A DNA stretch of 64,000 bases, from the IMG/VR virus record IMGVR_UViG_3300035703_000022, positions 62,001-126,000 of that record; one strand, 5' to 3'. The notes under the pieces were generated by a model. That model saw only the letters and a list, made by a program, of their open reading frames with translations. It made no database searches and had not been told where the DNA came from. Source of the DNA: a virus. The translations under genes were made by a program, and so were the position numbers. Of this stretch, positions 33,408 to 50,500 are shown piece after piece. Every line of letters starts with the position of its first letter. Position 1 is the stretch's first letter.

Positions 33408-33836
33408 TTAATTAAAATTGCCATAATCTGCTCTCATATATCGTCCTAAAATATTACTATTGTAGTATAATGGGATTCCATCTCCAAGAGATTCTTTCAA
33501 TACATTATTTAGAAAAAGTTGTCTAGTTTCTTCATAATTACAGCTCATTTTTGTATCATGAAGACTCAAAATAACTCTATTAAAAATTTCTTTTCCAAAT
33601 TTCTTTACATCATCTTTCAATTCAAAACAGGAACCGTAATATTTTTTCCAATCAGATTCTTGCTTTACTTTTCTTTTCTTACCCGGTGGTTTTCTATAAG
33701 ACCAAAAATACTTTCTACCAATATACTTTCTACCGTTGGACTGATTGGTAATAAGATAAACAAACCCAAAGTTGTTTTCTATATTATCAGAATCAAAAAT
33801 TTGGCCATTAAATGTCCAAGGGTTCTCATAACTCAT
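33408..33836 (-). CDS. GIY-YIG-type endonuclease-like protein, 142 aa
   Basis: N-terminal GIY-YIG-like motifs (FGFVYLITNQSNGRKYIGRK), then a basic segment (RKPPGKKRKVKQESDWKKYY) and a helical end with NYEETRQLFL. Resembles T4-like phage proteins of the Seg/putative homing type. A catalytic Arg and Glu can be placed in KKYYGSCFELK and the following helix, but the identification is by eye. Possible mobile endonuclease or repair protein. A TTGACA-like promoter lies at 33889-33918. Confidence 0.72.
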   Translation of the reverse strand: MSYENPWTFNGQIFDSDNIENNFGFVYLITNQSNGRKYIGRKYFWSYRKPPGKKRKVKQESDWKKYYGSCFELKDDVKKFGKEIFNRVILSLHDTKMSCNYEETRQLFLNNVLKESLGDGIPLYYNSNILGRYMRADYGNFN

Positions 33837-33901: not shown

Positions 33902-34657
33902 TCAAGAGGCTATGTCAAGTATTTTTTGTTCATCTATAAAATTAATTAAAGTTTCTGCCCAAAATTTATGAAAAGGTTCTGGTAGATGCTTTGACCATCT
34001 AGGATCTTTTATGATATTTCTCCAATCTTCATGATGACTGGCAACCCCCCAATAAGAATATGAAGAATATACATCATTTGATTTTGATTGATCATATAGA
34101 TTAGTTTTAGTACTATGATGACCAAAAAAGTTTTTCTTATGAATTAGATTCCAATTTCCAAGATACCAATAACTACTTGCGTGAAATACGTATGGTATGT
34201 TATACTGATCACATATAGTTTGTATAATAAAAATTTGAGATAAGGCTTTATAATTCAAAAAATCATCGGTATTCGATTTTATATAATCTTCATATGGTCT
34301 AATGAAATCAGTATCAACCAATAATTGTTTTTCAGTATGTTCATTTTGAAATAATATGGAAGGACAACAGTGATAAATTTTTTCCGGTAACTTAATATAA
34401 GTTCTAGCAGGATCACAAAAATTACAAAGAACAAATACATTCTGATTTTTTATTATTGCATGTTGAATTCTTATCATAAACTGACGAATTATCCAATCAT
34501 TACTGCCACCAGAGACAGCAAAATTTTCATAATCAAATCCATAATGTTTGGCAATATATGCGGGATAAGCTTTATCAAAAGATTTTGGTGAATATTGCTC
34601 CTCTATTTCTGCACCTGCAGTATGACTATCTCCAAAAGCAAGTAATATCCTTTTCAT
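33902..34657 (-). CDS. SGNH/GDSL hydrolase-like protein 1, 251 aa
   Basis: Starts MKRILLAFGDSHTAGAEIEE: block I GDSH supplies the nucleophile Ser, block III is SGGSNDW, and the distal His lies in PEPFHKFW near the end. The family removes or adds acyl groups on sugars, lipids or peptides. The ATG at 34657 overlaps the carbamoyltransferase stop (ATGA); an ATG two codons earlier is possible. Forms a unit with the carbamoyltransferase and the small DPFIYK peptide. Confidence 0.85.
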   Translation of the reverse strand: MKRILLAFGDSHTAGAEIEEQYSPKSFDKAYPAYIAKHYGFDYENFAVSGGSNDWIIRQFMIRIQHAIIKNQNVFVLCNFCDPARTYIKLPEKIYHCCPSILFQNEHTEKQLLVDTDFIRPYEDYIKSNTDDFLNYKALSQIFIIQTICDQYNIPYVFHASSYWYLGNWNLIHKKNFFGHHSTKTNLYDQSKSNDVYSSYSYWGVASHHEDWRNIIKDPRWSKHLPEPFHKFWAETLINFIDEQKILDIAS

Positions 34658-36123
34658 GTCCATATCTTAATTTGATGAATTTCTTCCCATGTATATACCT
34701 GATTTATATCATTAATAATGGGTTCTCCCTTTATATTTAAACTAGTATTCAGAATCATAGGACATCCAGTTTTTTCATACCATATTTCCAAAAGTTCTCT
34801 AAACTGTGGATTATTTTTCTTTGATAATGTTTGAACTCGACTTGTATTGTCAAGGTGAACTATCGCTGGATATAAATCTGGCCTTTTACATTTAGCAGTA
34901 AATTGCATATATGGAGTTTTGTTAGTAGGCATTTCAAAATATTGATTAGCCATCTCCTCCAAAATTACAGGAGCAAATGGTCTAAATGATTCTCTTTTTT
35001 TAATTGAATTTACCAAATTCTTAATATCATCTCCTCTCGGATCTGCTATTAAACTTCTATTACCTAAAGATCTTGGACCAAACTCTGCACGACCTCTAGC
35101 TATTCCACATATTTTGTTTTCTATGAGATGATTAACTATTTCATGGTTAGATGATTTGTAACCCAAATCAAATCCCAAATAGGGTCCAGACCACTCTATA
35201 TGTTTTTTACTATGTGATAACACCGATCCAATAGAACTACCATCATCTCCTGGTGCAGGCATAATCCATACGTTATCAAAATATTTGTAACAAATAGAAT
35301 TAGCCACACAATTTAAAGCGCATCCCCCCATCAACACTAAATTTTTATTTCTAGATATTGATAGTGATTTGATTAGAACTCTTTCAAATAAAAATTCATA
35401 TACGCTTTGAGTAGCTGCAGCAATATCAAAAATATCTCTTTGAGAATTAAGATCCGGTCTCCACCATCGACATCCTCTGTGGAGATTATATTTAATTTTA
35501 AAAGGGTCTTCTTCTGAGAGATCTATAAAGTCTTCGAGGATGTCTGAAAATAGTCTAGAAGGGTCTCCAAAGGCGGACATGCCCATAAGGATGTATTCCT
35601 CTTCATTAGGCTTTAATCCACATCTCTGGGTCATTGCGGAGTACCATAGACCCAAACTGGAGGGATATAAGTGCGAATATAGTTTTTTAAGTTCTTTTCC
35701 CTTTCCCTCCCATATGGTAAAAGTATCAAACTCACCGATAGCATCCAATACAATTACCGTAGCGTCAGTAAATGGACTGGTATAATATCCAGCAGCAGCA
35801 TGACTGCGATGATGATTTGAGTATTTAATAGGAACTTTCAGTGAAGTTTTATCAAAAATATATTTTGGTATATTATTTTCATTTAAACAATATCCTTGTC
35901 CAGAAAATATTTGTCTTAATGTTTTTAATCTAGGACTTTCATACCAATAAATCTGATTTGGTTCACCAAAACTTAATGCATAATCAACCAAACACCTGTT
36001 GATATGTGGATCATTTTTTATTTTACTAAATCTCTCACTAGAACTAGCAAAGACCAAACAGTCATCTTGAAAGATACTTAAAGCAGCGTTATGACTATTT
36101 GATGATATTCCCCATTTAATCAC
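34654..36123 (-). CDS. carbamoyltransferase (NodU/CmcH/TobZ family)
   Basis: Transfers a carbamoyl group from carbamoyl phosphate, via carbamoyl-AMP, to a hydroxyl of a sugar or secondary metabolite. The 489-residue protein has KIKNDPHIN, the metal-binding NHHRSHAAAGYYTSPF, the LMGGCALNCVANS block and the C-terminal catalytic block GRAEFGPRSLGNRSLIADPR. It is shorter than family members of about 550-600 residues. A GTG start overlaps the stop of the 34-aa peptide (GTGA). With the downstream SGNH gene it suggests modification of a glycan or small product. Confidence 0.92.
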   Translation of the reverse strand: MIKWGISSNSHNAALSIFQDDCLVFASSSERFSKIKNDPHINRCLVDYALSFGEPNQIYWYESPRLKTLRQIFSGQGYCLNENNIPKYIFDKTSLKVPIKYSNHHRSHAAAGYYTSPFTDATVIVLDAIGEFDTFTIWEGKGKELKKLYSHLYPSSLGLWYSAMTQRCGLKPNEEEYILMGMSAFGDPSRLFSDILEDFIDLSEEDPFKIKYNLHRGCRWWRPDLNSQRDIFDIAAATQSVYEFLFERVLIKSLSISRNKNLVLMGGCALNCVANSICYKYFDNVWIMPAPGDDGSSIGSVLSHSKKHIEWSGPYLGFDLGYKSSNHEIVNHLIENKICGIARGRAEFGPRSLGNRSLIADPRGDDIKNLVNSIKKRESFRPFAPVILEEMANQYFEMPTNKTPYMQFTAKCKRPDLYPAIVHLDNTSRVQTLSKKNNPQFRELLEIWYEKTGCPMILNTSLNIKGEPIINDINQVYTWEEIHQIKIWT

Positions 36124-36224
36124 TTGTATATAAAAGGATCACGTTTTTGTAAATTTTTTAATCTCTTTTTAAAATTTATTTCTTTTTTCCAATTAGAAAT
36201 AAGATTCCAAAGTTTCTTAATCAT
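36120..36224 (-). CDS. 34-aa basic peptide ending DPFIYK, copy 1
   Basis: Starts MIKKLWNLISNWKKEINFKK and ends with KRDPFIYK. One amphipathic basic helix and a conserved aromatic tail. The stop overlaps the GTG start of the carbamoyltransferase. A second peptide of the same length and the same last six residues lies at 44359-44463, just before another SGNH gene. It could be an adaptor, a leader/substrate peptide or a small assembly factor. Confidence 0.72.
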   Translation of the reverse strand: MIKKLWNLISNWKKEINFKKRLKNLQKRDPFIYK

Positions 36225-36258
36225 TGAAAATTTATATCACTAAAATTTATTTAGATAC

Positions 36259-36282
36259 AAAAAAGGAGGTCGGTTGACCTCC
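36259..36282 (-). terminator. rho-independent terminator after the 304-aa gene
   Basis: 7-bp stem GGAGGTC/GACCTCC (36265-36271 with 36276-36282), 4-nt loop, T6 on the minus strand. It lies 23 nt past the stop of the Ala/Pro-rich virion gene. Confidence 0.9.
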
Positions 36283-36304
36283 AGGAGTCATATTTTAATT
36301 GTTC

Positions 36305-37219
36305 TCAACGAACATTCTTTGCGTACCACTTTTCAAAATCTTCTCTACGCTTGTCACCTCTTGGTGGCATAGGAGTCTTTTCACCACGGACTTTGCCGTA
36401 CTTCTTTTCGTTTTCCTTCTCTTCATCTTCTTCATGTTTCTCTGGATTTTCACGAGCTTCTTGAGCCTCATCCAGAATTTCAACTCCATAAGATTCTAGA
36501 ATGGAAGATCTCCAATCTTCACTCATGTTTGCCATCATTACGAGCGCATTCTCTTCAGTCTCTGCATAACCCTCACCAAGTAAATGTCCTTTGATAAGAT
36601 CAAAGATATCTACACCTGCTTTTACAACAGTAGGAGTTTTTTCTGCGGCTGCAGTCCCCTTGTTATAGAGAACTTTATTAACTTCAGCTCTAGAACCACC
36701 TTCTTTTCTGATTTTTTGAGCTTGAGCAAGTTTTGGATTTGCTTTTGCCCATGCATCCATTGCAGATCCTGCTGGTTTCGCTGGTGCTGATGGAGCGGTT
36801 GGTTTTGGTGCAGCAGATGCAGCAGGTTTTGCAACAGGGGCAGCGGCAGGTTTAGGAGATGTAGCAGGAGCTGGAGCAGGTTTTGCAGCAGGGGCAGCGG
36901 CAGGTTTAGGAGATGCAGCAGGTTTTGTAGCAGGAGTAGTTGGTTTGATTACTCCACCACCTCTAACATTTCTGTTTCTTGTTATTGGCGCCTCTGGTTT
37001 TTTTCCTGCTGCATTTCCATAAAGAAGAGTATTACCTAAAGCAACTCTATTTTTAGAGACAGTGGCATCATAAGCCGCTCTAGCTTTTGGATCTGTGGGA
37101 GCACCACGTTCCATAAGTTGTTCTACACCCTCTTCTACAATTTCTTCATTAAGAACCTCAGTGGTCTCATAAACTTTCGAATAGGCCTCAAAGAGACCTC
37201 TGATGTCTTGTCCTTCCAT
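36305..37219 (-). CDS. Ala/Pro-rich virion-type protein, 304 aa
   Basis: N-terminal helical part (MEGQDIRGLFEAYSKVYE), a low-complexity Ala/Pro/Lys linker at about residues 90-155, then a helical domain with GYAETEENALVMMANMSEDW and a highly charged tail ending WYAKNVR. The MANMSEDWR-type segment recurs in cyanophage head-associated proteins (from memory). Likely structural or scaffold; own late-type box upstream and a terminator downstream. Confidence 0.65.
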   Translation of the reverse strand: MEGQDIRGLFEAYSKVYETTEVLNEEIVEEGVEQLMERGAPTDPKARAAYDATVSKNRVALGNTLLYGNAAGKKPEAPITRNRNVRGGGVIKPTTPATKPAASPKPAAAPAAKPAPAPATSPKPAAAPVAKPAASAAPKPTAPSAPAKPAGSAMDAWAKANPKLAQAQKIRKEGGSRAEVNKVLYNKGTAAAEKTPTVVKAGVDIFDLIKGHLLGEGYAETEENALVMMANMSEDWRSSILESYGVEILDEAQEARENPEKHEEDEEKENEKKYGKVRGEKTPMPPRGDKRREDFEKWYAKNVR

Positions 37220-37250
37220 TTTTATGCAATAAAAAGTACTTTTATAATGT

Positions 37251-37258
37251 TATTTATT
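37251..37258 (-). promoter_or_regulatory. late-type promoter box for the 304-aa gene
   Basis: AATAAATA on the minus strand (7 of 8), 32 nt before the ATG at 37219. Divergent from the plus-strand late box at 37280. Confidence 0.5.
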
Positions 37259-37279
37259 ATTCTTACCAATTTATCAATC

Positions 37280-37287
37280 AATAAATA
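37280..37287 (+). promoter_or_regulatory. late-type promoter box for the plus-strand fibre-like gene
   Basis: AATAAATA on the plus strand (7 of 8), 30 nt before the ATG at 37317, which has a GAGGA ribosome site. Confidence 0.5.
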
Positions 37288-37316
37288 TAAAAATAGGGAA
37301 AGACTGAGGAAAATTA

Positions 37317-38267
37317 ATGTCTAGACTCGGGATCAACACTGGTAGTAATCCTAATGATGGTCAAGGTGATCCATTAAGAGTTGCAATGGGCAAAATTAAT
37401 AGTAATTTTGCAGAAATTTATAATTCTTTTGGTGATGGATTTAGTCTAATTAGCTATGCAAGTACTGCTGGAATTTCATCAGTTGCAAGAAATTTAACTG
37501 GAAGTCCAAGAATAAACGTTAGTGGTATTTTAAATACCGGCATCACAACAACAGAACATATAGAAGTAACAAATATAACCTCCACAGGAATAATTACTGC
37601 AACTCAATTTGTGGGAGATGGATCTCAACTTACAAATGTTACTGCTCTTGTTGGTGGATTGGAAGTATTAGATGATAATGTAAGAAAGGGAGTTGCAAGA
37701 GAACTTAATTTTGGCGATAATATAATTTCTTCCGGACCAAATAATGTAGGAAGAGTTACTATTTCTGTAACATCAACACCATTTTCAGAAGCTTCTGGAT
37801 TTGCTGACTCTGCAAATTATGCAGAAAATTCTGGACTTGCTGATGTTGCAAATTATGCAGAAGTGTCAGGCATATCCACAAACTCTCTTTTTGCGACAAC
37901 TTCTGGTTCACTCACAGGAAGTCCAGATATTACGGTAGGAGTTGTTACCGCAAATCTATTTGTTGGTGATGGTTCTGGTATATTCAATCTTAATACTACC
38001 AATGTATCATATTGGATTCTCAACAACTCTGGAATTCATACATTTTCAAACGTCGGAATAGGCACGACAAATCCAACAATAAAATTAGATGTTGTTGGAG
38101 ACGGCAAGTTTAGTGGTATAGTTACCGCCACAAATTTTGATAGTCTACAAGATATTAGAGTTGGATTTAATACTTCTTATGGATTAATTTTAACTTCTCC
38201 AAATGGCACCAAGTATCGTCTGGTTGTTGATGACATTGGAGTTTTAAGTACAGTTCTTGTTGAATAA
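37317..38267 (+). CDS. fibre-like structural protein, 316 aa
   Basis: N-terminus SRLGINTGSNPNDGQGDPLR and KINSNFAEIYNSFGD, the attachment module of cyanophage fibre-type proteins. The body is Gly/Ser/Thr-rich with TGIITATQFVGDGSQLTNVT and NVGIGTTNPTIKLDV repeats shared with the fibre genes at 52-63 kb. It ends in a short globular domain (TSPNGTKYRLVVDDIG). No S74 chaperone. Alone on the plus strand between minus-strand genes; possible decoration or whisker protein. Confidence 0.78.
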   Translation: MSRLGINTGSNPNDGQGDPLRVAMGKINSNFAEIYNSFGDGFSLISYASTAGISSVARNLTGSPRINVSGILNTGITTTEHIEVTNITSTGIITATQFVGDGSQLTNVTALVGGLEVLDDNVRKGVARELNFGDNIISSGPNNVGRVTISVTSTPFSEASGFADSANYAENSGLADVANYAEVSGISTNSLFATTSGSLTGSPDITVGVVTANLFVGDGSGIFNLNTTNVSYWILNNSGIHTFSNVGIGTTNPTIKLDVVGDGKFSGIVTATNFDSLQDIRVGFNTSYGLILTSPNGTKYRLVVDDIGVLSTVLVE

Positions 38268-38285
38268 TTAATTATAAATTAATCT

Positions 38286-39542
38286 TCATTCAGGTTTTGG
38301 TTTAGTTTTAATGACACTCCAAATCCTTTGAAGCTCTGGGAATGTTTCAATAACATTTTCATTTCTAATTTTATCAAACTTTCTCATAGAATCTAAAAAT
38401 TGAGGAATCAATCGTTGTTCTTGATATAAGTCAATATACGTTATTAAACTCTCATAAAAAACTACAGATCTTTTTGATTTATTTGGAATTAAAAAATTAT
38501 CAATGTGATTTCTTATATTTTGTTTTGCAGCTTCTTTTGTTTTTTTATCCAAAATCCAAACAGACATTTCTCTTGGAGTTTGCATAAAATTTAAAAAGAA
38601 AAAATCTATATCTTTCATAAGACCACTATTATACAAATATTGGTGTAAATCAACTATTTCAAAAATATTCAATGCCTGAACTGTACAATCAAAATGTAAT
38701 CTATGTGTAATTGATTTATTTTTAAATGTTTCAATAAATTGTTCGGCATGAGACACAAATTTATCCCATTTGAATCCCTTTCGAATTAATTCACCTTTAG
38801 CTCCCATTCCATCAACACTAATGTGAACCTCTACACTTCTATTAAATTTATCCCAGACATCAAAAATGTGTCTACCCTTGTAAACAAGATTACTGAAGTT
38901 GCTATTATAGGCTAGAGTTACTTCATTATTTCTACGTAGTTCAATTAGTTTATCCAATATTTTCCAGTGTTCATCTATAATTAGAGATTCACCTCCAGAA
39001 AAATATAAATGTTTTACCATTTTTAAATATGGTTCGGATTCTTCGTAAGTTTTTTCCGAAGCATTCCATCTACCAGAAATTACGCCATTTTGTTCTAATT
39101 CAAAACTGGAACTAGAAGTCCAACTACACATTCTACATTTGAAATTACACTTATTACTTAGTTTTAAATCCCACCAAATAAATCCCGGTCTATTGACAGT
39201 ATAATCAGCATTCGTATCGTATATAATTCTTTTATTATCCGAAAACAAATTATTAATAAAGTCTTGTCTTAACGAACTTTTTCCAGCGGCTTGGTTATTA
39301 TAACACACTTTACAGTGTTCACTCGGAATGTCATTCAACATATTTTCCCGAAGTTTTTTTATTGGATCATCATTCCAGATCTCCCATAAAGATTTTTTTT
39401 TAATATCTCCATAAGTATATTCAGAAACGCAACATGGTTTGACTTCACCATCTTGTCTAATATCCAAAGCCATCCAAGGAGCAACGCAGAAAACTTTTCC
39501 GTTTATATTGACTTTATTTTTATCAATCTTCTTATTAAACAT
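38286..39542 (-). CDS. radical SAM protein with N-terminal Cys-rich domain, copy B
   Basis: 418 residues. An N-terminal Cys-rich part (FCVAPWMALDIRQDGEVKPC with C19, C37, C38, then HCKVC at C77/C80) looks like a SPASM/twitch-type extra Fe-S site placed in front. The radical SAM cluster motif is CNFKCRMC (C132, C136, C139), followed by YFSGGESLI (SAM-binding GGE). Such enzymes do C-H activation on peptides or sugars. Overlaps copy A by 8 nt. Substrate unknown. Confidence 0.86.
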   Translation of the reverse strand: MFNKKIDKNKVNINGKVFCVAPWMALDIRQDGEVKPCCVSEYTYGDIKKKSLWEIWNDDPIKKLRENMLNDIPSEHCKVCYNNQAAGKSSLRQDFINNLFSDNKRIIYDTNADYTVNRPGFIWWDLKLSNKCNFKCRMCSWTSSSSFELEQNGVISGRWNASEKTYEESEPYLKMVKHLYFSGGESLIIDEHWKILDKLIELRRNNEVTLAYNSNFSNLVYKGRHIFDVWDKFNRSVEVHISVDGMGAKGELIRKGFKWDKFVSHAEQFIETFKNKSITHRLHFDCTVQALNIFEIVDLHQYLYNSGLMKDIDFFFLNFMQTPREMSVWILDKKTKEAAKQNIRNHIDNFLIPNKSKRSVVFYESLITYIDLYQEQRLIPQFLDSMRKFDKIRNENVIETFPELQRIWSVIKTKPKPE

Positions 39543-40872
39543 TATCCCAAATCCCCTTTAGTTCAGGAAATACTTCCAAATAATTTTCATTTCTTATACA
39601 ATCCAAAGCAGACATATAAGACTTGTAATGTGGAACCAGGTGGTTCGCCTCTTCACCAGATAGAAGTTTTAGAACAGATATGTATTGTTTAATAGATTCC
39701 TTGGCTTTTGCTGGTATGAGATAATTTTCAATATGATATTTAATCTTCTGAGCTAATAATCTTCTCGACTCGGTATTAAGAATCAAGACTGACATATAAT
39801 CAGGATTATGTAAAATACATAAAGAGAAATCATCCCAACTATTGATTATACCTCTTAGATAAAGTTCTTTATGTGCATCCATAGTATGGAAACAATTTGT
39901 TACCTGGAAAACATAATTAATTTTTACACTTGTATGAGGAAATTTGCTTCTAAACATTTTAAAATTATCTAGAAACTTCTGCCAATCGAATCCTTTACGA
40001 ATCAATTCTCCACGTTTACCAGTTCCATCAAAACTTACAGACAAGTATAGGTTTGGAAACTTTTTCCACAAATCCAAAACATTTTCATCTTTATACTTTA
40101 AAGTACTAAAATTTGTATTATAGGACAACCTGACCTTAGTATTTCTATTTTTTTCTATTAATTTTTTAAGAATTCTATAATGATGATCAGAAATTAAAGG
40201 TTCTCCGCCAGCAAAGTATACTTCTTCAACTATATCATATAGGGGTTCAATATCTTGATGTACCATATCTACATCAATTTTTGGATATTCACCTTCAATA
40301 TTAAACTCTTTCCTCATCTCTTGTTCCCAGGAACTACTATACCCAGGACTACACATTCTACATTTAAAATTACAGATATTATTTAATCTAAAATCCCAAT
40401 AAACAAGATTAAATCTATCGAAAGTTCCGTCTTCTTTAGTTTCTTGTACATGTTCAAAATGTTTTGCATAAGTCTCATTCATACTGAGTCTTAAAGAACC
40501 ATGTCCTATTTCTTCTTCTTTATAACATGATGTGCAGTAACTAGATTTTTTTCCATTCATCATGTTTCTGCGGAGTTCTTTCATTTTATCATTATTCCAA
40601 ATCTCCTTAAGAGACTCATTCATCAAAGAACCCATTTTAAAATCCCTTGGATCGCCAGAACATTCCGTAGCAACGATCTCTAATGGATTTTTTACTTCAT
40701 TATTATTTTCATTTGTTTCATCAGATTCTTCGTTTGAATCTTGTAAATCATCATCAAGACCTTCTGTGCCGCATATAGGCATCATGCAACAAGGATAAAC
40801 ATCTCCATTTGGTCCAATGTTCATATGAACCCAAGGAGCCATACAAAAAGTTTTAGTTGATTTTATACTCAT
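39535..40872 (-). CDS. radical SAM protein with N-terminal Cys-rich domain, copy A
   Basis: 445 residues; paralogue of copy B with the same layout: FCMAPWVHMNIGPNGDVYPC, YCTSCYKEEEIGHGSLRLS, CNICNFKCRMC-type motif (C167, C171, C174), YFAGGEPLI. It differs by an acidic Asp/Glu/Asn-rich insertion at residues 38-62 and an extra CSGDPRDF segment. The pair could act one after the other on one substrate. Follows the DUF6356-like gene by about 45 nt. Confidence 0.86.
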   Translation of the reverse strand: MSIKSTKTFCMAPWVHMNIGPNGDVYPCCMMPICGTEGLDDDLQDSNEESDETNENNNEVKNPLEIVATECSGDPRDFKMGSLMNESLKEIWNNDKMKELRRNMMNGKKSSYCTSCYKEEEIGHGSLRLSMNETYAKHFEHVQETKEDGTFDRFNLVYWDFRLNNICNFKCRMCSPGYSSSWEQEMRKEFNIEGEYPKIDVDMVHQDIEPLYDIVEEVYFAGGEPLISDHHYRILKKLIEKNRNTKVRLSYNTNFSTLKYKDENVLDLWKKFPNLYLSVSFDGTGKRGELIRKGFDWQKFLDNFKMFRSKFPHTSVKINYVFQVTNCFHTMDAHKELYLRGIINSWDDFSLCILHNPDYMSVLILNTESRRLLAQKIKYHIENYLIPAKAKESIKQYISVLKLLSGEEANHLVPHYKSYMSALDCIRNENYLEVFPELKGIWDNV

Positions 40873-40916
40873 AACTAATTTATTAATAACAGGTGGATAA
40901 CGACGATCAATACTAA

Positions 40917-41174
40917 CTATATATGCGATTGTTTAGAAATGTAATCTGCATATTCTTTATTTGGATGATTAATTAATCTTTTATGATAAAAATATATAAT
41001 CATTTTTGCAGCAGTTCCTGTAAAAAATCCAGGAACAATACCATGTATTATACTAGAAATACCAACTAAAATCATCTTAACTCCAGCATAAGAAGCCCAT
41101 AACAAATGACTTATATAAGTTTCTCTACTAGATTCCAAGTGACTTGAACTTTTCTTTAATATGTTCATTATCAT
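40917..41174 (-). CDS. DUF6356-like small membrane protein, 85 aa
   Basis: Starts MIMNILKKSSSHLESSRETY; the pattern HLLWASYAGVKMILVGISSI and IHGIVPGFFTGTAAKMI matches my memory of DUF6356 proteins, which often sit near polysaccharide or acyl-modifying genes. Two membrane helices with a short loop. Placed between the ANL enzyme and the radical SAM pair. Confidence 0.65.
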   Translation of the reverse strand: MIMNILKKSSSHLESSRETYISHLLWASYAGVKMILVGISSIIHGIVPGFFTGTAAKMIIYFYHKRLINHPNKEYADYISKQSHI

Positions 41175-41198
41175 AAATGCGATTTTATAAGTTAAATT

Positions 41199-42740
41199 TT
41201 ATATTTCTAAACCTTCAAATTTTCGTAAGTACTCATCCCTACGTTTCAAAATGAATGTTGAAGGATTGGATTTTATTTCAACATGAGATCTGAAATAATC
41301 ACGTAATAATTGATTATCTATTTTGACTCCCGTAAAAAATAATTTCGGATCTAAAATTTCATATTTACTTATATGATGAGCCCAACATATGTTGCCAATA
41401 TTTGTATTAATTCCTCTTATTAGAATGTCTAAGTTAGATAGATCCAATTCATCGGAAACTCCTATTATAGATGTTTTCCATATAGCCAAGTATATTTCAT
41501 TTACTGCCGGATCATAGACAAACTTTGCATCTATGATTGGTTTAAATAATTCTAATATTTTATTATGACCGGCCACATCTACTACATGTTCATTTATTCT
41601 TATTAGATCTGTTCTGCCATTATGATAAAAATTATCACAATCTATTAAAAACTCATCATTTGTACAAACTTTTTGATTATAAGTTGGAATATTTACTTCC
41701 AAAAGATTTTTTTCAGTAAAAGAAATTTGATAGTAATCGTCTATTAAGGTGAATTTATTTTGAACAAAATTATCATCACTTGCTTGGTTTATGAATATTG
41801 GTCCACTAGTTTCTGATGTTCCAAATAAACTTATGATATTTTTTATTTTATTTTCTTTTACATATGATACCCATTCTTTTTTTATTGTAGATAGTGTATA
41901 AATTATTGTCTTCGATGGTGGGTTATTATGATCAATACCATTTAAATAACCATCAATATCATAAGTATATGGAATCATAATGTGGTCAAAAATATTTTTA
42001 TTTCTCATAAAATATTTTTCGTCATTAAAATCTGAACAATCTCCCCAATAATTAAATATATTTTTTACATCTTTGGACATCAATGTTGGAATAAAATAAG
42101 TAGCTGGACCACTACCGTGACCTAAACACTTTTCATTAACAACGTTCCCATAAAACATTTTAGAATTTCTCTGACATAAATCGAATAAAAATTCATGACT
42201 ATGTTCTATTATTTTTGGTGTTCCAGTAGTTCCACTTGAAGTGCATCTCATTGCAATAGATTTTGGATCTACTTTTATATTCTGAGTAATATTTTCATTA
42301 TATTCGTGACTTTCAATATCAGTGGAATAAATTGTATTTAAACAATGTTTAGTAAGAATAGCGTATTTACTTCTAGGGTGTTCTTTTGCAGCGGTATCAT
42401 CTTCACAAATGAAGTAGTGTATTGGTGATAGTAATTGTGTTTTAGTAGCAGAGTCTGGAGAAATTACTGTAATATTATAATCAATTATTGAAATAGAAAG
42501 TCCTAATTCCAAACAAGCAAAAACACTTGCCATTTTTCTTAAACAAGTTCCATAGTACCCAATAAGAACTGTTTCTCCTGGGTGTATTTCATAATTTGAT
42601 AGAAAATAATTTTTAGTCTGATCTACTATTTTTTCAAAATCATCGAAAGTATATTTTACAAGTTTACCTTCATCAGTAATATCATAAAATGTTATACTCT
42701 TATTGATAATATTTCTGTCTATTACATGTAAACAATTCAT
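41199..42740 (-). CDS. adenylate-forming (ANL/AMP-binding) enzyme, 513 aa
   Basis: Activates a carboxylate as acyl-AMP, usually for transfer to CoA or a carrier. Seen: P-loop CTSSGTTGTPK (about residues 166-176), the A5-type LFGTSETSGP, and the A7-type HNGRTDLIRIN. The C-terminal domain with the usual catalytic Lys is recognisable only as ESNPSTFILKRRD. No thiolation domain is fused and no carrier protein gene is seen nearby. A perfect late box lies 23 nt upstream. Substrate unknown; fatty or amino acid for a surface modification is possible. Confidence 0.85.
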   Translation of the reverse strand: MNCLHVIDRNIINKSITFYDITDEGKLVKYTFDDFEKIVDQTKNYFLSNYEIHPGETVLIGYYGTCLRKMASVFACLELGLSISIIDYNITVISPDSATKTQLLSPIHYFICEDDTAAKEHPRSKYAILTKHCLNTIYSTDIESHEYNENITQNIKVDPKSIAMRCTSSGTTGTPKIIEHSHEFLFDLCQRNSKMFYGNVVNEKCLGHGSGPATYFIPTLMSKDVKNIFNYWGDCSDFNDEKYFMRNKNIFDHIMIPYTYDIDGYLNGIDHNNPPSKTIIYTLSTIKKEWVSYVKENKIKNIISLFGTSETSGPIFINQASDDNFVQNKFTLIDDYYQISFTEKNLLEVNIPTYNQKVCTNDEFLIDCDNFYHNGRTDLIRINEHVVDVAGHNKILELFKPIIDAKFVYDPAVNEIYLAIWKTSIIGVSDELDLSNLDILIRGINTNIGNICWAHHISKYEILDPKLFFTGVKIDNQLLRDYFRSHVEIKSNPSTFILKRRDEYLRKFEGLEI

Positions 42741-42762
42741 AATAAATTGATTTATATAGAAG

Positions 42763-42770
42763 TATTTATA
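42763..42770 (-). promoter_or_regulatory. T4-type late promoter, perfect TATAAATA
   Basis: Minus strand, 23 nt before the ANL gene start; a second ATATAAATC lies between. It lies only 7 nt before the 3' end of the sulfotransferase-like gene, so the cassette is split into at least two late units. Confidence 0.7.
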
Positions 42771-42776
42771 GCTTGA

Positions 42777-43493
42777 TCAAATGGATAAATTATAAAGATA
42801 ATAATCCATTTCATATAGATCCAAGAAGTTTTTATTATTTGCACAATACTTATTAAAAATATCATTACAAAATTCATAGTTTTTTAATTTAAATTCAAAT
42901 TGCTGCATAGAATTACTATGCATTATTTGGACAGGTCTGTTCAAAATATTTGAAATTTTTTCATTGATATTTTTATCAAGTTTCAAAAAAGATATATCAA
43001 TATCATATTTAAAACAAAATTTTATAGTTGATAATTGAGGTTCAGTATGTCCATCGAATATAAATTTATTATTTTTTAATTCAGACAGGAATTTATTACG
43101 AGATCCTTTTTCATCGCCATCAAAATCAATTCCTTGATAATCATAGATATTTAAAAATTCATTTATTCCAGATATCCACCTTTCATTTGGGTCTCTAGTA
43201 ACAATAAAAAATTTATATTGACTTCTATATTTTTTTGGAATATCTAAGTCAAAATAACAGTTTGGTTGTAGAACAACCTTTACTGGAGTAAATTCTAAAG
43301 AATTTTCTATTGATGTGGAAGCATTCTTTGCGATTGGTACATATATTATTTTTTCTTTTTCTAATTCGAGAAAAGCTTGTATTTCTCTCCCACATGAAAA
43401 ATCCAGTTCTTGTTTTGGAAAATACTCATATGAAACTGAATTAAAAACAAGATCATTATATTTTTGCCAATCTAAACTATAAATTTTTTGCAT
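42777..43493 (-). CDS. sulfotransferase-like protein, 238 aa
   Basis: Resembles the sulfotransferase family 2 fold: the 5'-phosphosulfate loop YVPIAKNASTSIENSL (about residues 51-66) and the 3'-phosphate motif FIVTRDPNERWISGI (about 95-110). Such proteins move sulfate from PAPS to sugar hydroxyls. The rest is Asn/Lys/Ile-rich and divergent. Overlaps the SGNH-2 gene by 17 nt. Confidence 0.78.
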   Translation of the reverse strand: MQKIYSLDWQKYNDLVFNSVSYEYFPKQELDFSCGREIQAFLELEKEKIIYVPIAKNASTSIENSLEFTPVKVVLQPNCYFDLDIPKKYRSQYKFFIVTRDPNERWISGINEFLNIYDYQGIDFDGDEKGSRNKFLSELKNNKFIFDGHTEPQLSTIKFCFKYDIDISFLKLDKNINEKISNILNRPVQIMHSNSMQQFEFKLKNYEFCNDIFNKYCANNKNFLDLYEMDYYLYNLSI

Positions 43494-44340
43494 TTTTTAA
43501 ATTACTATAAATTTTTTCAGCAAATAATTTATTTGAATGTCTTCCATAATGAGCCAAATCTCTTGCATAGTCATTTGGAATTGGTTGATATAATTCACAC
43601 CCCAATAACTTTGATGTTGTTGGGAATGTGGAGAATTCATATAGTGGACACTTATCTTTCCATAAATTTTTAATTAACTCCACATTTACCATATTAAATG
43701 GAATTAGGTGATCCAAAACTTTCGGAGCATGAACGGATTTTAAAACCGATCCCGTTGATTCTTCAACTGCTGCAATTGCTTCTGGAGGATGTTCGTAAAT
43801 ATCTTCAAATTTTGTATTCATCAAAACAAAGTCTTTTTGATAGATAAGATGTCTGGTAATACCCGTCCAACAATAAATGACTAATTTTGGTGGCCCATAT
43901 TTTTTATACAACATCAGAGAATTATGGAGACAAAATTGTATTGAAGATCCACCTGCTCCAAGATTTATCACTGGAATTCCACTTTTTTGTTCTAAAAAAT
44001 ATGGAATAGTATGATTATCATCATTACCAGTTCCAAATATATGAGAACAACCAAACATTACTATCGAATTTTTCCAATCTATATCTTCAAATTCTTTTGT
44101 TCTGTATCCATAACTATTTAAAGTATACTTGATCTTATTATTTCTATAATACCAGTCTTTGGGTTGTCTCTTTAAGTTTTTTTTATAAAACTCATATGTG
44201 TCTATACCAAAAAAATCCCAAGACCCAACAACGGAATCTCTTTGAATCACTTCAGATTCTCCGTAATTATGTACAAATACGCCTGGAAAGGGGAGAAAAT
44301 TATTATTTTTTATAGAATCGACCGTATTTAAATTGATCAT
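43477..44340 (-). CDS. SGNH hydrolase-like protein 2, 287 aa
   Basis: Nucleophile block IVMFGCSHIFGTGND (GCSH in place of GDSH), the Gly-rich oxyanion block NLGAGGSSIQF, and a C-terminal DLAHYGRHSN with the catalytic His. The N-terminal 90 residues are extra relative to SGNH-1. It follows the second 34-aa DPFIYK peptide by 18 nt and precedes the sulfotransferase-like gene. Confidence 0.8.
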   Translation of the reverse strand: MINLNTVDSIKNNNFLPFPGVFVHNYGESEVIQRDSVVGSWDFFGIDTYEFYKKNLKRQPKDWYYRNNKIKYTLNSYGYRTKEFEDIDWKNSIVMFGCSHIFGTGNDDNHTIPYFLEQKSGIPVINLGAGGSSIQFCLHNSLMLYKKYGPPKLVIYCWTGITRHLIYQKDFVLMNTKFEDIYEHPPEAIAAVEESTGSVLKSVHAPKVLDHLIPFNMVNVELIKNLWKDKCPLYEFSTFPTTSKLLGCELYQPIPNDYARDLAHYGRHSNKLFAEKIYSNLKNAKNL

Positions 44341-44358
44341 ATAGTAATTAAATTCAAT

Positions 44359-44463
44359 TTATTTGTATATAAAAGGGTCTTCTCGTTGCAGGTCTTTGAT
44401 AAGTTTTTTGGTTTTAAAGTATTGGATAATCTTATTATAAATCTTCTTAAAATTAATTATCAT
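44359..44463 (-). CDS. 34-aa basic peptide ending DPFIYK, copy 2
   Basis: Starts MIINFKKIYNKIIQYFKTKK and ends QREDPFIYK. Same length (34), same amphipathic basic body and same last six residues as copy 1, though the bodies differ in sequence. 30 nt below a perfect late box. The conserved tail on a variable body argues for a common binding partner. Confidence 0.7.
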   Translation of the reverse strand: MIINFKKIYNKIIQYFKTKKLIKDLQREDPFIYK

Positions 44464-44492: not shown

Positions 44493-44500
44493 TATTTATA
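44493..44500 (-). promoter_or_regulatory. T4-type late promoter, perfect TATAAATA
   Basis: Minus strand, 30 nt before the DPFIYK-2 start and 17 nt below the end of the giant repeat gene. Sets the start of the modification cassette's upper unit. Confidence 0.7.
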
Positions 44501-44516
44501 GGTTATATCATCATAG

Positions 44517-47500
44517 TTATTTTAATATAGTATTATAAACTTTTACTTCATCTTGATTTTGATCGAGAACATACAAATAATTTCCATTCAAACTCAAATG
44601 AATATCCTTTGGAGTAACTGCACCACCAGCAGATGAACCAACATAAAGAGATTTTTGGCTATAAGTAGTATTATTTATCGATAAATTGGAAATCTCATAT
44701 TGAAGTATGACATTAACATCATTGACAAAAAGTTTTGTGGAATCTTGAGACTTTGTAATGGAAATCGGAGCAGTCGTCTCAGAACTTATATCTAAAAGAT
44801 GTCTATCGTATCCTACTAAAGTATTGCTAGTAGTTAAATCAAATCTTAGTATAGAGTCGTACTGTTGTCCAGTTAAGTATAAGTAATTACCATTACTAGA
44901 TAAAAATACATCATTAGGAACATTATCAATTCTACTTATATCTATATTCGTAGTTTGAGTAAATGATCCCAGTGATCCGGAAGAACCAGAATTTGAAATT
45001 TGATATATTCTATCATTACCTGGACCAGTTATCCAAAAAGTAGATCCAGTTGAGTCACATGTAAATCCAGTAGCAGCACTATCTGTTGAATGCGATACGG
45101 CATTCACATAAGTAGCAGTATTTATTTTATTTGCTGGGGATAAAGTATATCTACTAATATCATTTCCAGTATCTCCTAACATGTATAAATTTAATCCATC
45201 AGAAGTTTTGCATAATGATACTGGAGCAGAATCTTCACCAGAAAGCGAAATTACTCCAGTGTATGCAGTTTCTGGAGACCATGCGGTTTCTAGAGGAACT
45301 TCAACAACTTGAGTACCTGATAAAATATACATAGTTAATCCATCAGAGCTAAACGCTAGCCCATCAGAATCTATTCTGTGTATTAAATTATATGATTTAC
45401 CAGAATTAGTCCAACTAGAAAAATTCCAAGGTGAAGAAGTGGTATACTTATAAATTTTTTCTCCAGATTGACCTAACATCAATATAGTTTGTCCGTCGTC
45501 AGAAACCCAAACTCCAACAATATTGATATCTGGTACACTAGTTTGGAAATTAAATGAAGTATAATTATTGGCATTATATGGTGTCGCCAATGAATAAACT
45601 CTTATATCATCACCAGTATTTCCAAAATATGTTAATTTTGATCCATTGTCTCCAATATGAAGTCCTTGTGGAGAAGTGTCTTCTGCTATTGACATACTAG
45701 CTACATAGATACTCCCCACATCATATGCAGTATCCAGTATCATTTCATAAACTATTCCACCTGCCAAGGCATACATTTTAGTTCCATCAGTACTAATATC
45801 AATACCAGTTGGATCTACAAATATAGGACTAACGACAGTTTTAGCAGTTATTGTTGGACTATCTGATGCGTAATCTGTAGCATTATGTTGAGTTATTTGA
45901 TCAGAATCTCCAGTCAGATAGATCCTTGATCCATTTGCATTAAATGCCAATCCTCTAGTAGCAGAATCCATTGCAACTCCCGTTGCAGTAGAGGAAACTG
46001 AGCTAACATTCCATGCATAAGCACAAGTATAAGTTCTAACTGTATTGTTGGTAGAACCAAATACTGCAAATTTAGTTCCATTTCCAGTTCCACCAATAGT
46101 ATTATCAGATTTAAATTTGATACATTCAGGAGCAGTATCTGGAGATGCAAAATATTGAGTATTGATAGCAACAGTATCGTATGGATTATCAACTTCAAAT
46201 TCCCAAATTGAGGTACTGTTAATTACAAATAATTTAGTTCCATCATTATTAAATTTCAGTGATCTTGGATCTGGCACAAAATAAGCTATGTCTTTTGTAT
46301 TGCCTGTTGTTAATGTAGTATTGTAATTTACTGAAGGTGTATATTCACGAATAATATCTGTTGAGCCCACAATCCAATATCTTGATCCATCCTCTTTTAC
46401 CTCAAGACCATATGGTATAGTGTCTGCAAGTGATCCTGAATTACTAATAAATGTTCCGCTTGAAACTAGCCATGGAATTGATAAAGTATAACGATTTATA
46501 TCATCTCCGGATTGTCCATATACATACAATTCAGTTCCATTATTTGCAAATCTAGATACCATAGGAGTAGTTTCTTGAGTGGCTACATATAAAGATCCTT
46601 TATTTGCAGATAATAAGTTATGCGAGACTTCCATTGGAAATCCATAGACTTCATCTCCATCTAATACATAAATCCAGCCTCCATTTTTAGAAACTGCTAA
46701 ATCTGTTGCTGCTGTAATATTAACAAGATCGTTTGCGCCGATGGTTAATGATCTTTCTAGTGTCCATGTAATTGTTCCAGAAGCCCATGGAGTAAGAACT
46801 CCACTTTGTTTCAGACTGTATTCACGAATAGTATCTGAAGTGTCTCCCACAACATAGAATACTGTACCTTCTGTTACACCAGAACCATATGCAACTGCAA
46901 CCCCAGTTGGAGTTCCTTCAGCAGAAACATCTTTAGTTCCAGTCATTAAAGTAGCAGTTGATAAATCATATGCAGTACCCATAGTGTAGAAAAATACGTC
47001 ATCAGCTGTCTGTCCAACTAATGTAATATATTTTCCTGCATTAGCTCCATCTCTACTTACTTTTATACTATGTTGAACTCCGTCTGAGCCAGATACTAAT
47101 AAACTAGTAGCTTCTACAGTACCAAATTGAGTAATATCCCAAAACTTTGCATCTGTTGATGTAGTCGCTGTAATTGTATAACGATAAATTCTATCATTAC
47201 CAGTTCCAACTGCATATAAATGTTGTTTCCAGTTTCCTCCACCCGCATCATAAACATCTGTAATATCAAATCCAGTGTGTATTGTTTCTGTTTGAAGAGT
47301 GAATGATTTAGATTCATAAGTTGCTGTACTAACATCCCATGCAGTACTCAATGAATATTGATATACGATATCAGATGTTGTGCTGGACATTACATACATT
47401 TTAGTGCCATCTGACTTAAATGTAAGAGCTGCGGCAGTCGATAATTGAGCAGAAACTGATTTTACTTTATATGGAAGTCTTGCGCTAGTTATATCCCAAG

Positions 47501-50500
47501 GAGTGTCGAGAATTAATTCTACAACTCTATCTGAACTAGATCCAGTAATATAAAGTTTAGTTCCATCACTTTTTATCTCTACTCCCTGAGCAGTTCCATC
47601 ATAAGATAAAGTAGAAAAAGTTTTATATCCGGGAACTCCATTAACAGTAGAAATTGATGTGTTTATTGTAGTAACAGAATATGCAGTTTCTAAATCATAT
47701 TGATAAATTAAATCATCTAATTCATCACAAATATATAATCTCTTCCCTAAAGTGCCAGATGATCCATCTTTACCCCATGTCATTCCCGATGCATTAGCAT
47801 TAGCAGCAGGAAACGTTTTAGTAGGTATTCCACGTAAAGTAGTAATATCCCATGGAGTGTCTAAATTAAATTGTAGAATTCTATTGTTGGCGTCCTCAGT
47901 TAAATATACTCTTGTTCCAGTATCATTAAAATCTAATCCAGTCCAAGTTGCTCCACCAGAAGCCCCAGAGTTGCTTAATCCGTTAAGTACAGGAGATTGT
48001 GTACGACCAGGAACTGAAATGCCATTTATAGTAGTGGGAGTACTAGAATTATTCATAGTACTTATATCATATGCAGCACCAAGATAAAATTGATATATTC
48101 TATCATTATTATCACCAACAATGTACAACAATTTTCCAGCATTTGTTCCATATTTACAGAATGCCAAATCATAGGGTAAAGAATCCGATCCGCTGACACT
48201 CACATTCCTATATCTATATGCGGTAGATATATCCCATGGAGTTGAAAGAGTGAATTGTCTGAATGAATTATCATCATCAGCAACGCAGATCATTCTTGTT
48301 CCTTCTGGATTAAAAAATAATCCTGTTATTGCTCCAGCAAGTGTATTAAATGATTGAACATATGTTGCACTATTTAAAGTCCATGGAGTAGATAAAGTGT
48401 ATTCATATACACGGTCTTCAGTACTATTAGTTCCACCAATATACATTTTTGATCCTGCAGTAACTCCAGAAACAGTTTCTGGAGGACCAATATAAACTGA
48501 AGCAGGTGCAGCATCTTGCCCAGATACACTAACTGTTCTTTCAAACCATGCAGTACTAATATCCCAGGGAGTTTGTAAGTAAAATTGATATATTCTAGTT
48601 GTTCCAACATTACCATCAAGAACTGCCATGGATTTTCCATCATCCCCAAGAATTACAATACTTCTTGGATCTGTTGCAAAACTACTTACACTGAAAGATT
48701 TACTTTCATAAGTTGCAGTAACAAGGTCAAAAGCAGTAGAAAGAGAATACTGATATATTGTAGTTCCTATAAGAACATATATTTTTGTTCCATCTGGTCT
48801 CAAAACACTACTTTTTGGATTAACTCCTTGAGTTGATACATTAAGATTATTAAAATAATATGCAGTTGTTATGTCTCCCGGTGTCTTAACCGTATATTCA
48901 AAAATACTATTTAATTCATCGCCCAGAATATAAAATTTAGATTCATCGGTAGATACTTCAAATGATACGGGAGTAGTATCTAATGCAAATGGAACGGATT
49001 TATTATTATTAACTGCCGTTCTTAAATCAAATGGAGTACTCAGATCAAGTTGATGAATGTTGGTTAATGTCATTACATATAATCTAGTTCCATCTTGATT
49101 GAATCTAATAGTGTGTTGATTTGTTCCAAGAAGTCCCGTGAGAGAATAGTCACCATACCATAATGTATTGAAATCATATGGTGTACTTAAATCATATTTA
49201 AATATATCATGAGATGGAGAGGTTGGTAATGTCCATAAATTAGATCCATCTGAACTCAAGTAAATTTGATTCCACAATCTTCCGATAGATCTATCATATT
49301 GATCAACTGTATTAACAAATGTTGATGTTGAAAAAGTATTAAAATTGTAATTAGTTGATAATGGATATTTGTATATTCTTGGAGTACCACTAGCATTAAT
49401 TGTTAAATACAATTCACTACCATCATCTTTCATTAATATTGAAGATCCATTACCAAGAGCACTCATATTGTAAGTATCGTTTGAAATACTGGTTATATCA
49501 TATGGAGTAGACATATTAAAAGTATATAACCAAGAATCCGAAACCATTGCAATGTAAGAGCCAACACTAGAAATTCCTAATGAATTTATACTATTATCAT
49601 ATGGCCTAAAGTTTTTTGACGTATTCGTTCCGCCACTTGTAATAATACCAGCAGTTGTTAAATCTCTTTGATACAAAGTATTAAGTGTATTCGTAAACCA
49701 ATATAACTTATTGTCACCATCTCCAATAGCAATACCAGAAGAAACCGTTGGAGTTGAAAGTGAATACCCATCATATTGCCATGAACTAATATCCCAAGGA
49801 GTTTTTAATCTATATGCTACTATTAGATCTCTGAAATTTCCACAAACATAAACCAGTGTTCCATCACTACTAAAATCAATACCTGTTACATCACCATCAT
49901 AACTTGTGGGTATACTGGATGTTTGTAATGTTACTGTACTATTAATATCATACGCTACAGACAAATTGAATTGTCGAATAGTATCAGAATTATTTCCCAC
50001 AATATACATTTTATTTCCACTATCACCAAATACAATCCCAGTAGGATTTGAATCTGGAGCAGTTACTGTATATCCAGCAGTTGGAGCAAGTAGAACTACT
50101 GTTCCCAAATCCCATGCAGTGCCTAATTGATATTGGTAAACAGCATTTGTCGCTTCGTCACCAAGAATAAACATTTTGGTGCCAGTATCATTGAATGCCA
50201 ACCCCGAAGGTACGTCTGCCAAAGCTATTTCGGTAGTTCCAATAGTAAATTCTTTGGAATATGTTGATGTACTTACATCCCAAGCAGTGCTTAATGAATA
50301 TTGATATACTTTGTTGTTTTGATTTCCTAAAACAAACATTCTTGTCCCATCACTTGAGAAACGTACTGATCTAGGATCAGTATCTCTAGAAACCCCTGTG
50401 TTTATATTGAATGTTTTATCTGCCGTGGCGGTAACTGCACTAGAAGTAATATCCCATGCCGTAGTTAAATTATATTGATAAACTTGTTTTGTTGCACCAG

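What the first reader, a model, noticed from the sequence alone, without database searches (positions are those of the whole stretch)
33902..44463. Late-expressed modification cassette: carbamoyltransferase, two SGNH proteins, sulfotransferase, ANL enzyme, two radical SAM enzymes, DPFIYK peptides
Seen: ten genes with clear catalytic motifs lie among virion genes and carry two perfect T4-late boxes (42763 and 44493). Known: each family modifies glycans, lipids or peptides, but the set as a whole (carbamoyl transfer, sulfation, acyl activation and acyl transfer/hydrolysis, two radical SAM steps) is not one I can match to a described phage pathway. Inference: it decorates the virion fibres or the host envelope, or makes a small molecule, late in infection.
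Basis: partly seen in the sequence, partly recalled or inferred. Interest (0 to 1): 0.85.

Follow-up and report, generated by a model that had tools for sequence, protein, structure and literature searches.

The report
Micropeptide-led phage carbamoylation and radical-SAM cassette
A cyanobacterial virus carries two late-expressed operons of chemical-decoration enzymes, each headed by an unannotated 34-residue peptide ending DPFIYK that proves to be a conserved gene partner of a whole clade of viral carbamoyltransferases, so the cassette is built from movable sets of co-travelling genes rather than random cargo.

Summary
Two minus-strand operons lie among virion genes: A = peptide–SGNH2–sulfotransferase-like–ANL–DUF6356–rSAM1–rSAM2; B = peptide–carbamoyltransferase (CT)–SGNH1. 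The late boxes sit at promoter positions (p≈3e-5; wider motif ~1e-10).

Homologues co-occur elsewhere, as modules. (i) rSAM1–rSAM2 are adjacent and in the same order in 46 viral contigs; a scan of 84,980 genomes gave no full-length relative above 36% identity. Their upstream partner is either ANL–DUF6356 or a different gene set. (ii) The strongest result: the "DPFIYK peptide" is a widespread micropeptide tied to a clade of ~489-aa viral CTs. 62 of 76 CT loci found by CT alone carry it (43 directly upstream; shuffles 7/7700), in unrelated contexts, e.g. primase–[peptide–CT]–helicase. I found no Pfam, PHROG or literature entry. Its PF(I/V)Y tail resembles that of DUF5989, a small protein encoded beside cellular CTs, but it lacks DUF5989's hydrophobic helix and profile match. 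(iii) One relative fuses both operons.

Best reading: O-carbamoylation with a micropeptide partner plus radical/acyl/sulfo chemistry on a hydroxylated envelope or fibre component. Substrate and peptide role are inferred. Cytosine carbamoylation and a peptide substrate of the rSAM pair are disfavoured.

The parts
44493..44500 (-). T4-late-type box TATAAATA, 29 nt before peptide A start
   Evidence: equivalent box in the relative L050
44359..44463 (-). peptide A, 34 aa, MIINFKKIYNKIIQYFKTKKLIKDLQREDPFIYK, heads operon A
   Evidence: conserved in L013/L014/L050, L015, L026
43477..44340 (-). SGNH2, SGNH-like esterase/acyltransferase (GCS block I, DxxH block V)
   Evidence: motifs invariant in 8 homologues; no family match
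42777..43493 (-). sulfotransferase-like protein (KNASTSI and TRDP..RW.SG motifs)
   Evidence: motifs invariant in 5 homologues; no Pfam, PHROG, NCBIfam or PDB match
42763..42770 (-). T4-late-type box TATAAATA, 22 nt before ANL start
   Evidence: also before ANL in L050 and L017, not in six others
41199..42740 (-). ANL-superfamily adenylate-forming enzyme
   Evidence: PF00501 5.7e-11; TSSGTTGTPK and NGR.DLIRIN invariant in 9 homologues, no obvious C-terminal GK motif; absent from cultured phage records
40917..41174 (-). DUF6356 small protein
   Evidence: PF19883 1e-13; follows ANL in 14 of 14 contigs
39535..40872 (-). rSAM1, twitch-domain radical SAM (N_Twi_rSAM)
   Evidence: NF033640 366 bits, cut-off 170; CNFKCRMC and N-terminal Cys invariant in 21 homologues
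38286..39542 (-). rSAM2, paralogous partner of rSAM1 (about 37% identity)
   Evidence: NF033640 330 bits; Cys invariant in 19 homologues; always directly after rSAM1
36248..36254 (-). late-type box CTAAATA, 23 nt before peptide B start
   Evidence: box of this type in six of six relatives
36120..36224 (-). peptide B, 34 aa, MIKKLWNLISNWKKEINFKKRLKNLQKRDPFIYK, 4-nt stop/start overlap with CT
   Evidence: family evidence
34654..36123 (-). NodU/TobZ-type O-carbamoyltransferase, 489 aa, GTG start
   Evidence: PF16861 9e-52, PF02543 7.6e-39; PDB relatives NovN-type, GdmN, TobZ; clade
33902..34663 (-). SGNH1, GDS-type SGNH hydrolase/transferase
   Evidence: PF00657 23.3 bits, just under cut-off 23.6; GDSHTAG and GGSN motifs in the closest homologues
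33408..33836 (-). SegE-type GIY-YIG endonuclease that follows peptide-CT-SGNH1 in several relatives (possible vehicle of module B)
   Evidence: PF19835 4e-52; synteny in L032, L044, L045, L048, L078, L381

Best explanation
The region is a late-expressed island of movable modules. Module 1 (peptide B-CT-SGNH1) is an O-carbamoylation unit: CT uses carbamoyl phosphate and ATP to put a carbamoyl group on a hydroxyl of an acceptor, and the DPFIYK micropeptide is its dedicated partner. Its basic, C-terminal DPFIYK tail probably docks on CT, and its aromatic N-terminal helix probably holds the enzyme at a membrane or on its acceptor. SGNH1 removes or transfers an acyl group on the same acceptor. Module 2 (rSAM1-rSAM2, here with ANL-DUF6356) is a two-step radical unit whose acyl-activating partner is exchangeable. 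Module 3 (SGNH2-sulfotransferase-like) adds further tailoring. Together they most likely decorate a hydroxylated glycan or lipid of the host envelope or fibre late in infection. Shown: anatomy, conserved adjacency, selection on the peptide as protein, late-type boxes, module reshuffling. Inferred: physical peptide-CT contact, membrane role, substrate, and that the modules act on one product.
For: Peptide-CT linkage: of 115 loci found by the peptide motif, 67 have CT as next same-strand gene and 93 within three. Conversely, of 76 loci found by CT, 43 have the peptide within 100 bp upstream, 14 more within 2.6 kb and 5 elsewhere in the locus, against 7 of 7700 shuffles. The pair sits in unrelated contexts: primase-[pair]-DnaB-like helicase, beside fibres, beside rSAM or glycosyltransferase clusters. 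All codon variants of Pro, Ile, Phe and Tyr are used while DPFIY is kept in 53 of 56, so selection is on protein. Peptide-linked CTs form one clade, support 100. A cellular parallel exists: DUF5989 proteins end (A)PF(I/V)Y(T)LF and 50 of 63 DUF5989 loci carry a CT within 1.5 kb. Modules: rSAM pair invariant in 46 contigs, ANL-DUF6356 before it in 13 of 14 ANL contigs, other gene sets elsewhere. Same two-operon layout in L015 and G207; single fused operon in L026. CT found in 15 of 20 rSAM-pair records and in G000. Late boxes.
Against: No biochemical data. The peptide is only motif-similar to DUF5989 (hhalign probability 28%). 14 of 76 CT loci show no peptide in the fetched DNA, and six peptide loci have SGNH but no CT in the next three genes. 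In the window one CT must serve two peptides. The pair and the CT module are often found apart. Fibre regions and tRNA-rich regions are known places for unrelated cargo.
Confidence: 0.55

Rival explanations
1. Independent morons: each module is unrelated cargo that collects at fibre or homing-endonuclease hot spots, with no shared product.
For: Modules are often found apart; a SegE homing endonuclease follows module 1; ANL contexts vary.
Against: Repeated co-occurrence in the same order, including one fused operon (L026) and the same layout in separate contigs; late-type boxes on both operons.
Confidence: 0.28
2. The CT carbamoylates 5-hydroxymethylcytosine in phage DNA, like the metagenomic enzyme of PMC8670742.
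For: Same enzyme family; phage origin; in many relatives the pair lies between primase and helicase genes.
Against: That enzyme co-occurs with a thymidylate synthase/dCMP hydroxymethylase; G000 has none and 197 peptide/CT loci (1.96 Mb) gave one weak hit. The CT next to thymidylate synthase (L298) is far outside the clade. G000 is incomplete, so absence is not proof.
Confidence: 0.06
3. The DPFIYK peptides are precursor peptides modified by the two radical SAM enzymes.
For: Short conserved peptides in an operon with SPASM/twitch-type radical SAM genes.
Against: 80 of 115 peptide loci have no radical SAM gene in the fetched DNA, and 70 of those have CT. The most conserved part is the extreme C-terminus, and the peptide follows CT, not the pair.
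Confidence: 0.05
4. The radical SAM proteins are viperin-like enzymes acting on nucleotides (defence or counter-defence).
For: Weak hits to viperin models: NF038283 44 bits, PADLOC pVip 1.9e-9, PDB RSAD2 3e-4.
Against: Far below the NF038283 cut-off of 180; N_Twi_rSAM is a much better match and has an N-terminal cysteine domain that the viperin models do not cover.
Confidence: 0.03

Closest known systems
Cellular carbamoyltransferase operons with DUF5989 (PF19451); the SxtI-SxtJ-SxtK trio is a described example (PMC2679770)
   Same: NodU/TobZ-type CT encoded with a tiny protein whose C-terminus is PF(I/V)Y plus 0-3 residues; GDSL/SGNH and sulfotransferase genes also occur in that described cluster. 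Assignment of SxtK to DUF5989 is from memory, not tested.
   Different: The phage peptide has a basic KR-rich helix instead of DUF5989's hydrophobic stretch, no PF19451 match, no SxtJ seen, and lies directly upstream of CT. No claim that the product is related.
Cultured cyanophage and pelagiphage Nol-like carbamoyltransferases (PHROG 1601; T4-GC 303/721/1350 in PMC3037559)
   Same: Same enzyme family in T4-like phages, near sugar genes or fibres
   Different: Those examined are longer (507-606 aa), at most 36% identical, lack the peptide, and all but Phage C48C1 fall outside the clade in the tree. The single-cell virus AG-345-D19 (42%) has a variant, SDPYIYEE.
5-hydroxymethylcytosine carbamoyltransferase (PMC8670742)
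   Same: Phage-borne CT of the same family
   Different: Linked to thymidylate synthase, which is absent here
NF033640 N_Twi_rSAM family
   Same: Both rSAMs score well above its cut-off
   Different: A fixed viral rSAM1-rSAM2 pair with exchangeable upstream partners; I found no description of it

Membership tests
NodU/TobZ-type O-carbamoyltransferase | Carbam_trans_N and Carbam_trans_C domains | tested here: met
   7.6e-39 and 9e-52
NodU/TobZ-type O-carbamoyltransferase | Conserved motifs shared with solved CTs (HHxxHA, EFGPRxLGNRS, KKRxxFRPFAP, LNTSxN) | tested here: met
   alignment to 9s2t; invariant or near-invariant in 12 relatives
NodU/TobZ-type O-carbamoyltransferase | Carbamoyl transfer activity | not testable with these tools
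   needs assay
DUF5989 / SxtK-like (for the DPFIYK peptide) | Match to PF19451 | tested here: not met
   no match in G000 at E<=10; no Pfam match
DUF5989 / SxtK-like (for the DPFIYK peptide) | C-terminal PF(I/V)Y | tested here: met
   all 110 aligned peptides against 60 of 61 DUF5989; the peptides were collected by this motif, but the unbiased set keeps it too
DUF5989 / SxtK-like (for the DPFIYK peptide) | Hydrophobic (membrane-type) helix before the tail | tested here: not met
   column comparison: KR-rich in the peptide, L/I/V-rich in DUF5989
DUF5989 / SxtK-like (for the DPFIYK peptide) | Genetic linkage to a CT | tested here: met
   peptide; DUF5989
DUF5989 / SxtK-like (for the DPFIYK peptide) | Common ancestry by profile comparison | tested here: inconclusive
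   hhalign E=6e-4 for one pairwise comparison, probability 28%
N_Twi_rSAM (NF033640) | Score above curated cut-off | tested here: met
   330 and 366 bits, cut-off 170
N_Twi_rSAM (NF033640) | CxxxCxxC and N-terminal twitch cysteines | tested here: met
   invariant in both sets
Viperin | Score above NF038283 cut-off | tested here: not met
   44 and 23 bits, cut-off 180
ANL superfamily | AMP-binding domain and P-loop motif | tested here: met
   5.7e-11; TSSGTTGTPK invariant
ANL superfamily | C-terminal catalytic lysine (A10, GK) | tested here: inconclusive
   no GK motif; a conserved K490 exists but is not aligned to a known A10
PAPS sulfotransferase | Family profile or structural match | tested here: not met
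   no Pfam/PHROG/NCBIfam/PDB match; model pLDDT 33
PAPS sulfotransferase | 5'-PSB and 3'-PB motifs | tested here: inconclusive
   KNASTSI and TRDP..RW.SG conserved, read by eye
SGNH hydrolase | Pfam GDSL match | tested here: inconclusive
   SGNH1 23.3 bits, cut-off 23.6; SGNH2 none, with a weak hit in its relative L085
5hmC DNA carbamoyltransferase system | Companion thymidylate synthase/dCMP hydroxymethylase | tested here: not met
   (G000 is an incomplete record)

The most novel reading that the evidence does not exclude
The DPFIYK micropeptide is an essential subunit of a viral carbamoyltransferase clade and shows, together with DUF5989, a general rule: many NodU-type carbamoyltransferases, viral and cellular, need a tiny partner whose PF(I/V)Y tail docks on the enzyme and whose N-terminal helix places it at a membrane. 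The linked radical SAM pair then belongs to an undescribed viral route that builds a carbamoylated, acylated and possibly sulfated surface molecule.
Probability: 0.25. Interest if true: 0.75.

Novelty: new variant of a known kind. Interest (0 to 1): 0.62.

Why it matters
Carbamoyltransferases are among the commonest unexplained enzymes of marine T4-like phages, and apart from a cytosine-modifying enzyme I found no assigned acceptor for them. A conserved 34-40 residue partner, too short for usual gene calling, gives a concrete handle: it can be co-purified, deleted or mutated. It also suggests a role for the small unknown protein beside cellular carbamoyltransferases. The fixed radical SAM pair with exchangeable partners is a second undescribed viral enzyme unit.

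Tried and rejected
tblastn of peptide B against cultured phages: no match, partly because it is short and low-complexity. Structure prediction: the sulfotransferase model is useless (pLDDT 33); the rSAM1 model is confident only in its C-terminal half (58.6), and the fold search gave no match below 1e-3, so neither is used. Profiles of the alternative upstream genes (c12, c19) against solved structures gave nothing significant, so my early reading of c12, c25 and c57 as sulfotransferases is unproven. Peptide as rSAM precursor: rejected on co-occurrence. DNA carbamoylation: disfavoured. TET/JBP search in G000: empty, but the controls were silent too, so it says nothing. Literature: no paper for DPFIYK, DUF5989, or cyanophage + CT + radical SAM together.
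Full report
Setting. The window is positions 62001-126000 of G000, a 138.5-kb viral record. It carries psbA/psbD-type, talC-type and gnd-type genes (read from sequence), 27 tRNA genes and T4-like fibre genes, so it is a T4-like cyanophage. The closest cultured relatives at DNA level are the Synechococcus phages DSL-LC03 and DSL-LC02, over 6-8% of a 24-kb query.

Observation. All ten ORFs are real. They form two operons, split by a minus-strand gene (36305-37219) and a plus-strand fibre connector (37317-38267). TATAAATA is not enriched in number (5 against 7.9), but it is strongly enriched 10-32 nt before start codons (3 of 5, p=3e-5; [ACG]ATAAATA 7 of 12, p=1e-10). Peptide A, ANL and peptide B each have such a box. 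The box before peptide B recurs in six of six relatives.

Do the genes belong together? I fetched viral contigs with ANL, rSAM1 and SGNH2 as queries and mapped all cassette genes on them. rSAM1 and rSAM2 are adjacent, same strand and same order in 46 contigs (59-88% identity; some contigs near-identical). ANL and DUF6356 precede the pair in 13 of 14 ANL contigs; the 14th (L010) lacks the pair at that place. In about 15 other contigs the place of ANL-DUF6356 is taken by two c12 genes, usually with a ferritin-like protein, a DUF6552 protein and c25 genes. No contig has both. SGNH2 (close orthologues) and ST occur with ANL, except L016 (ST with the pair only). L015 and G207 have the same two-operon layout as the window. 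L026 has peptide-CT-SGNH2-ST-ANL-DUF6356-rSAM1-rSAM2 in one run. A CT is present in 15 of 20 rSAM-pair records: eight of the peptide-linked clade, the rest of a longer kind, one record with both. G000 itself has both kinds. The pair is essentially viral: the genome scan over 84,980 species found nothing full-length above 36% identity (two short pieces at 54-60% over about 20-27 residues only), and the only cultured phages with a hit to rSAM2 are vibriophages at about 22%.

The DPFIYK peptide. The two peptides share only their tail. The tail plus stop is a rare pattern (0 in 100 shuffles). In 115 usable loci the next same-strand gene is CT in 67, CT is within three genes in 93, and CT is somewhere in the locus in 98. 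The reverse test starts from CT alone: of 76 loci with at least 400 bp upstream, 43 have a DPFIY-type peptide within 100 bp, 14 more within 2.6 kb and 5 more elsewhere in the locus, against 7 hits in 7700 shuffled upstream regions of 360 bp. In this unbiased set the tail is DPFIYK in 41 of 56, DPFIY plus another residue in 12, and close variants in 3. All four Pro codons, all three Ile codons and both Phe and Tyr codons are used, so selection acts on the protein. The pair sits in unrelated neighbourhoods: between primase and DnaB-like helicase genes, beside fibres with SGNH1 and a SegE-type endonuclease, and beside N_Twi_rSAM or glycosyltransferase clusters. It thus moves as a unit.

The CT clade. 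In a tree of 96 CTs the peptide-linked ones fall in one clade (support 100; 84 rows, 80 with the peptide in the fetched DNA, one divergent cultured phage, C48C1, on a long branch). The longer CTs of P-SSM2, S-SSM7, S-CAM1, S-TIM4 and HTVC008M, which have no peptide, lie outside, and so do six DUF5989-linked cellular CTs (quick tree with long branches, so deep order is unsure). The single-cell virus AG-345-D19 (42% identity) has a variant tail, SDPYIYEE.

A cellular parallel. DUF5989 (PF19451) members found in two bacterial phyla end in (A)PF(I/V)Y(T)LF, and 50 of 63 loci carry a CT within 1.5 kb. The described SxtI-SxtJ-SxtK trio is said to act together in carbamoyl transfer, SxtK being a 54-aa protein of unknown function (PMC2679770). 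The phage peptide is not a DUF5989 member: no profile match, no hydrophobic helix, and profile comparison only suggestive (probability 28%). So it works like DUF5989 at best; membership is not claimed. The comparison says nothing about the product.

Mechanism. CT has the domains and conserved motifs of solved O-carbamoyltransferases. The 4-nt overlap of peptide B and CT (same in L015, L026, L044, L045, L048 and L078) fits coupled translation and a 1:1 partner. The aromatic N-terminus and KR-rich helix suggest a membrane-surface peptide (inference). SGNH1 follows CT in the window's relatives, and SGNH genes are frequent neighbours elsewhere, which fits acyl removal or transfer on the same acceptor (inference). 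Both rSAMs keep CxxxCxxC and N-terminal cysteines, so they are probably active. ANL keeps its nucleotide-binding motif but has no obvious GK lysine. ST is motif-only.

Alternatives. Cytosine carbamoylation (PMC8670742) is disfavoured by the lack of a thymidylate synthase in G000 and in 1.96 Mb of related loci. A RiPP-type role of the peptide is disfavoured because 80 of 115 peptide loci have no radical SAM gene in reach, and 70 of these have CT. Viperin membership fails its cut-off. Independent cargo remains the main rival.

Verdict. The main new result is the micropeptide-carbamoyltransferase partnership; second is the fixed viral radical SAM pair with exchangeable partners. Substrate and chemistry remain open.

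Noticed in passing
G000 C1:44000-49000 (L382, upstream of the window); also L383: A second, longer CT (526 aa, Pfam 6.5e-53) without the peptide, preceded by a gene resembling GT25 glycosyltransferases and one resembling amidinotransferases (both read by eye; neither fragment had a Pfam match).
   Followed up: partly
window 9865-20047, minus strand: Phage-borne sugar cluster: GT25, at least one GT11 and two similar genes, UDP-glucose/GDP-mannose dehydrogenase, NAD-synthase-like protein, NDP-sugar epimerase/dehydratase. A possible source of the acceptor glycan.
   Followed up: partly
window 33408-33836: SegE-type GIY-YIG endonuclease directly after SGNH1, in the same place in several relatives; may mobilise the carbamoylation module. 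PHROG 447 labels a relative (L127) 'NAD synthetase', which looks like a wrong name.
   Followed up: partly
L056-L079: Tandem arrays of two to seven N_Twi_rSAM genes in viral contigs, with B12-type radical SAM, other radical SAM, SGNH and sometimes CT genes.
   Followed up: no
L016, L019-L022, L025, L029, L034, L039, L052-L054: Alternative upstream set for the rSAM pair: P-loop-like genes (c12 twice, c25), a very conserved ferritin-like protein (c19) and often a DUF6552 protein; function unknown.
   Followed up: partly
window 44517-51887: 2456-aa protein of many similar repeats next to operon A, probably a giant fibre or adhesin; 58742-63136 looks similar.
   Followed up: no
L356, L357, L362, L363: Proteins with the RKRDPFIYK/R tail but a different, charged or unrelated N-terminus, suggesting that the tail is the functional part.
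   Followed up: no
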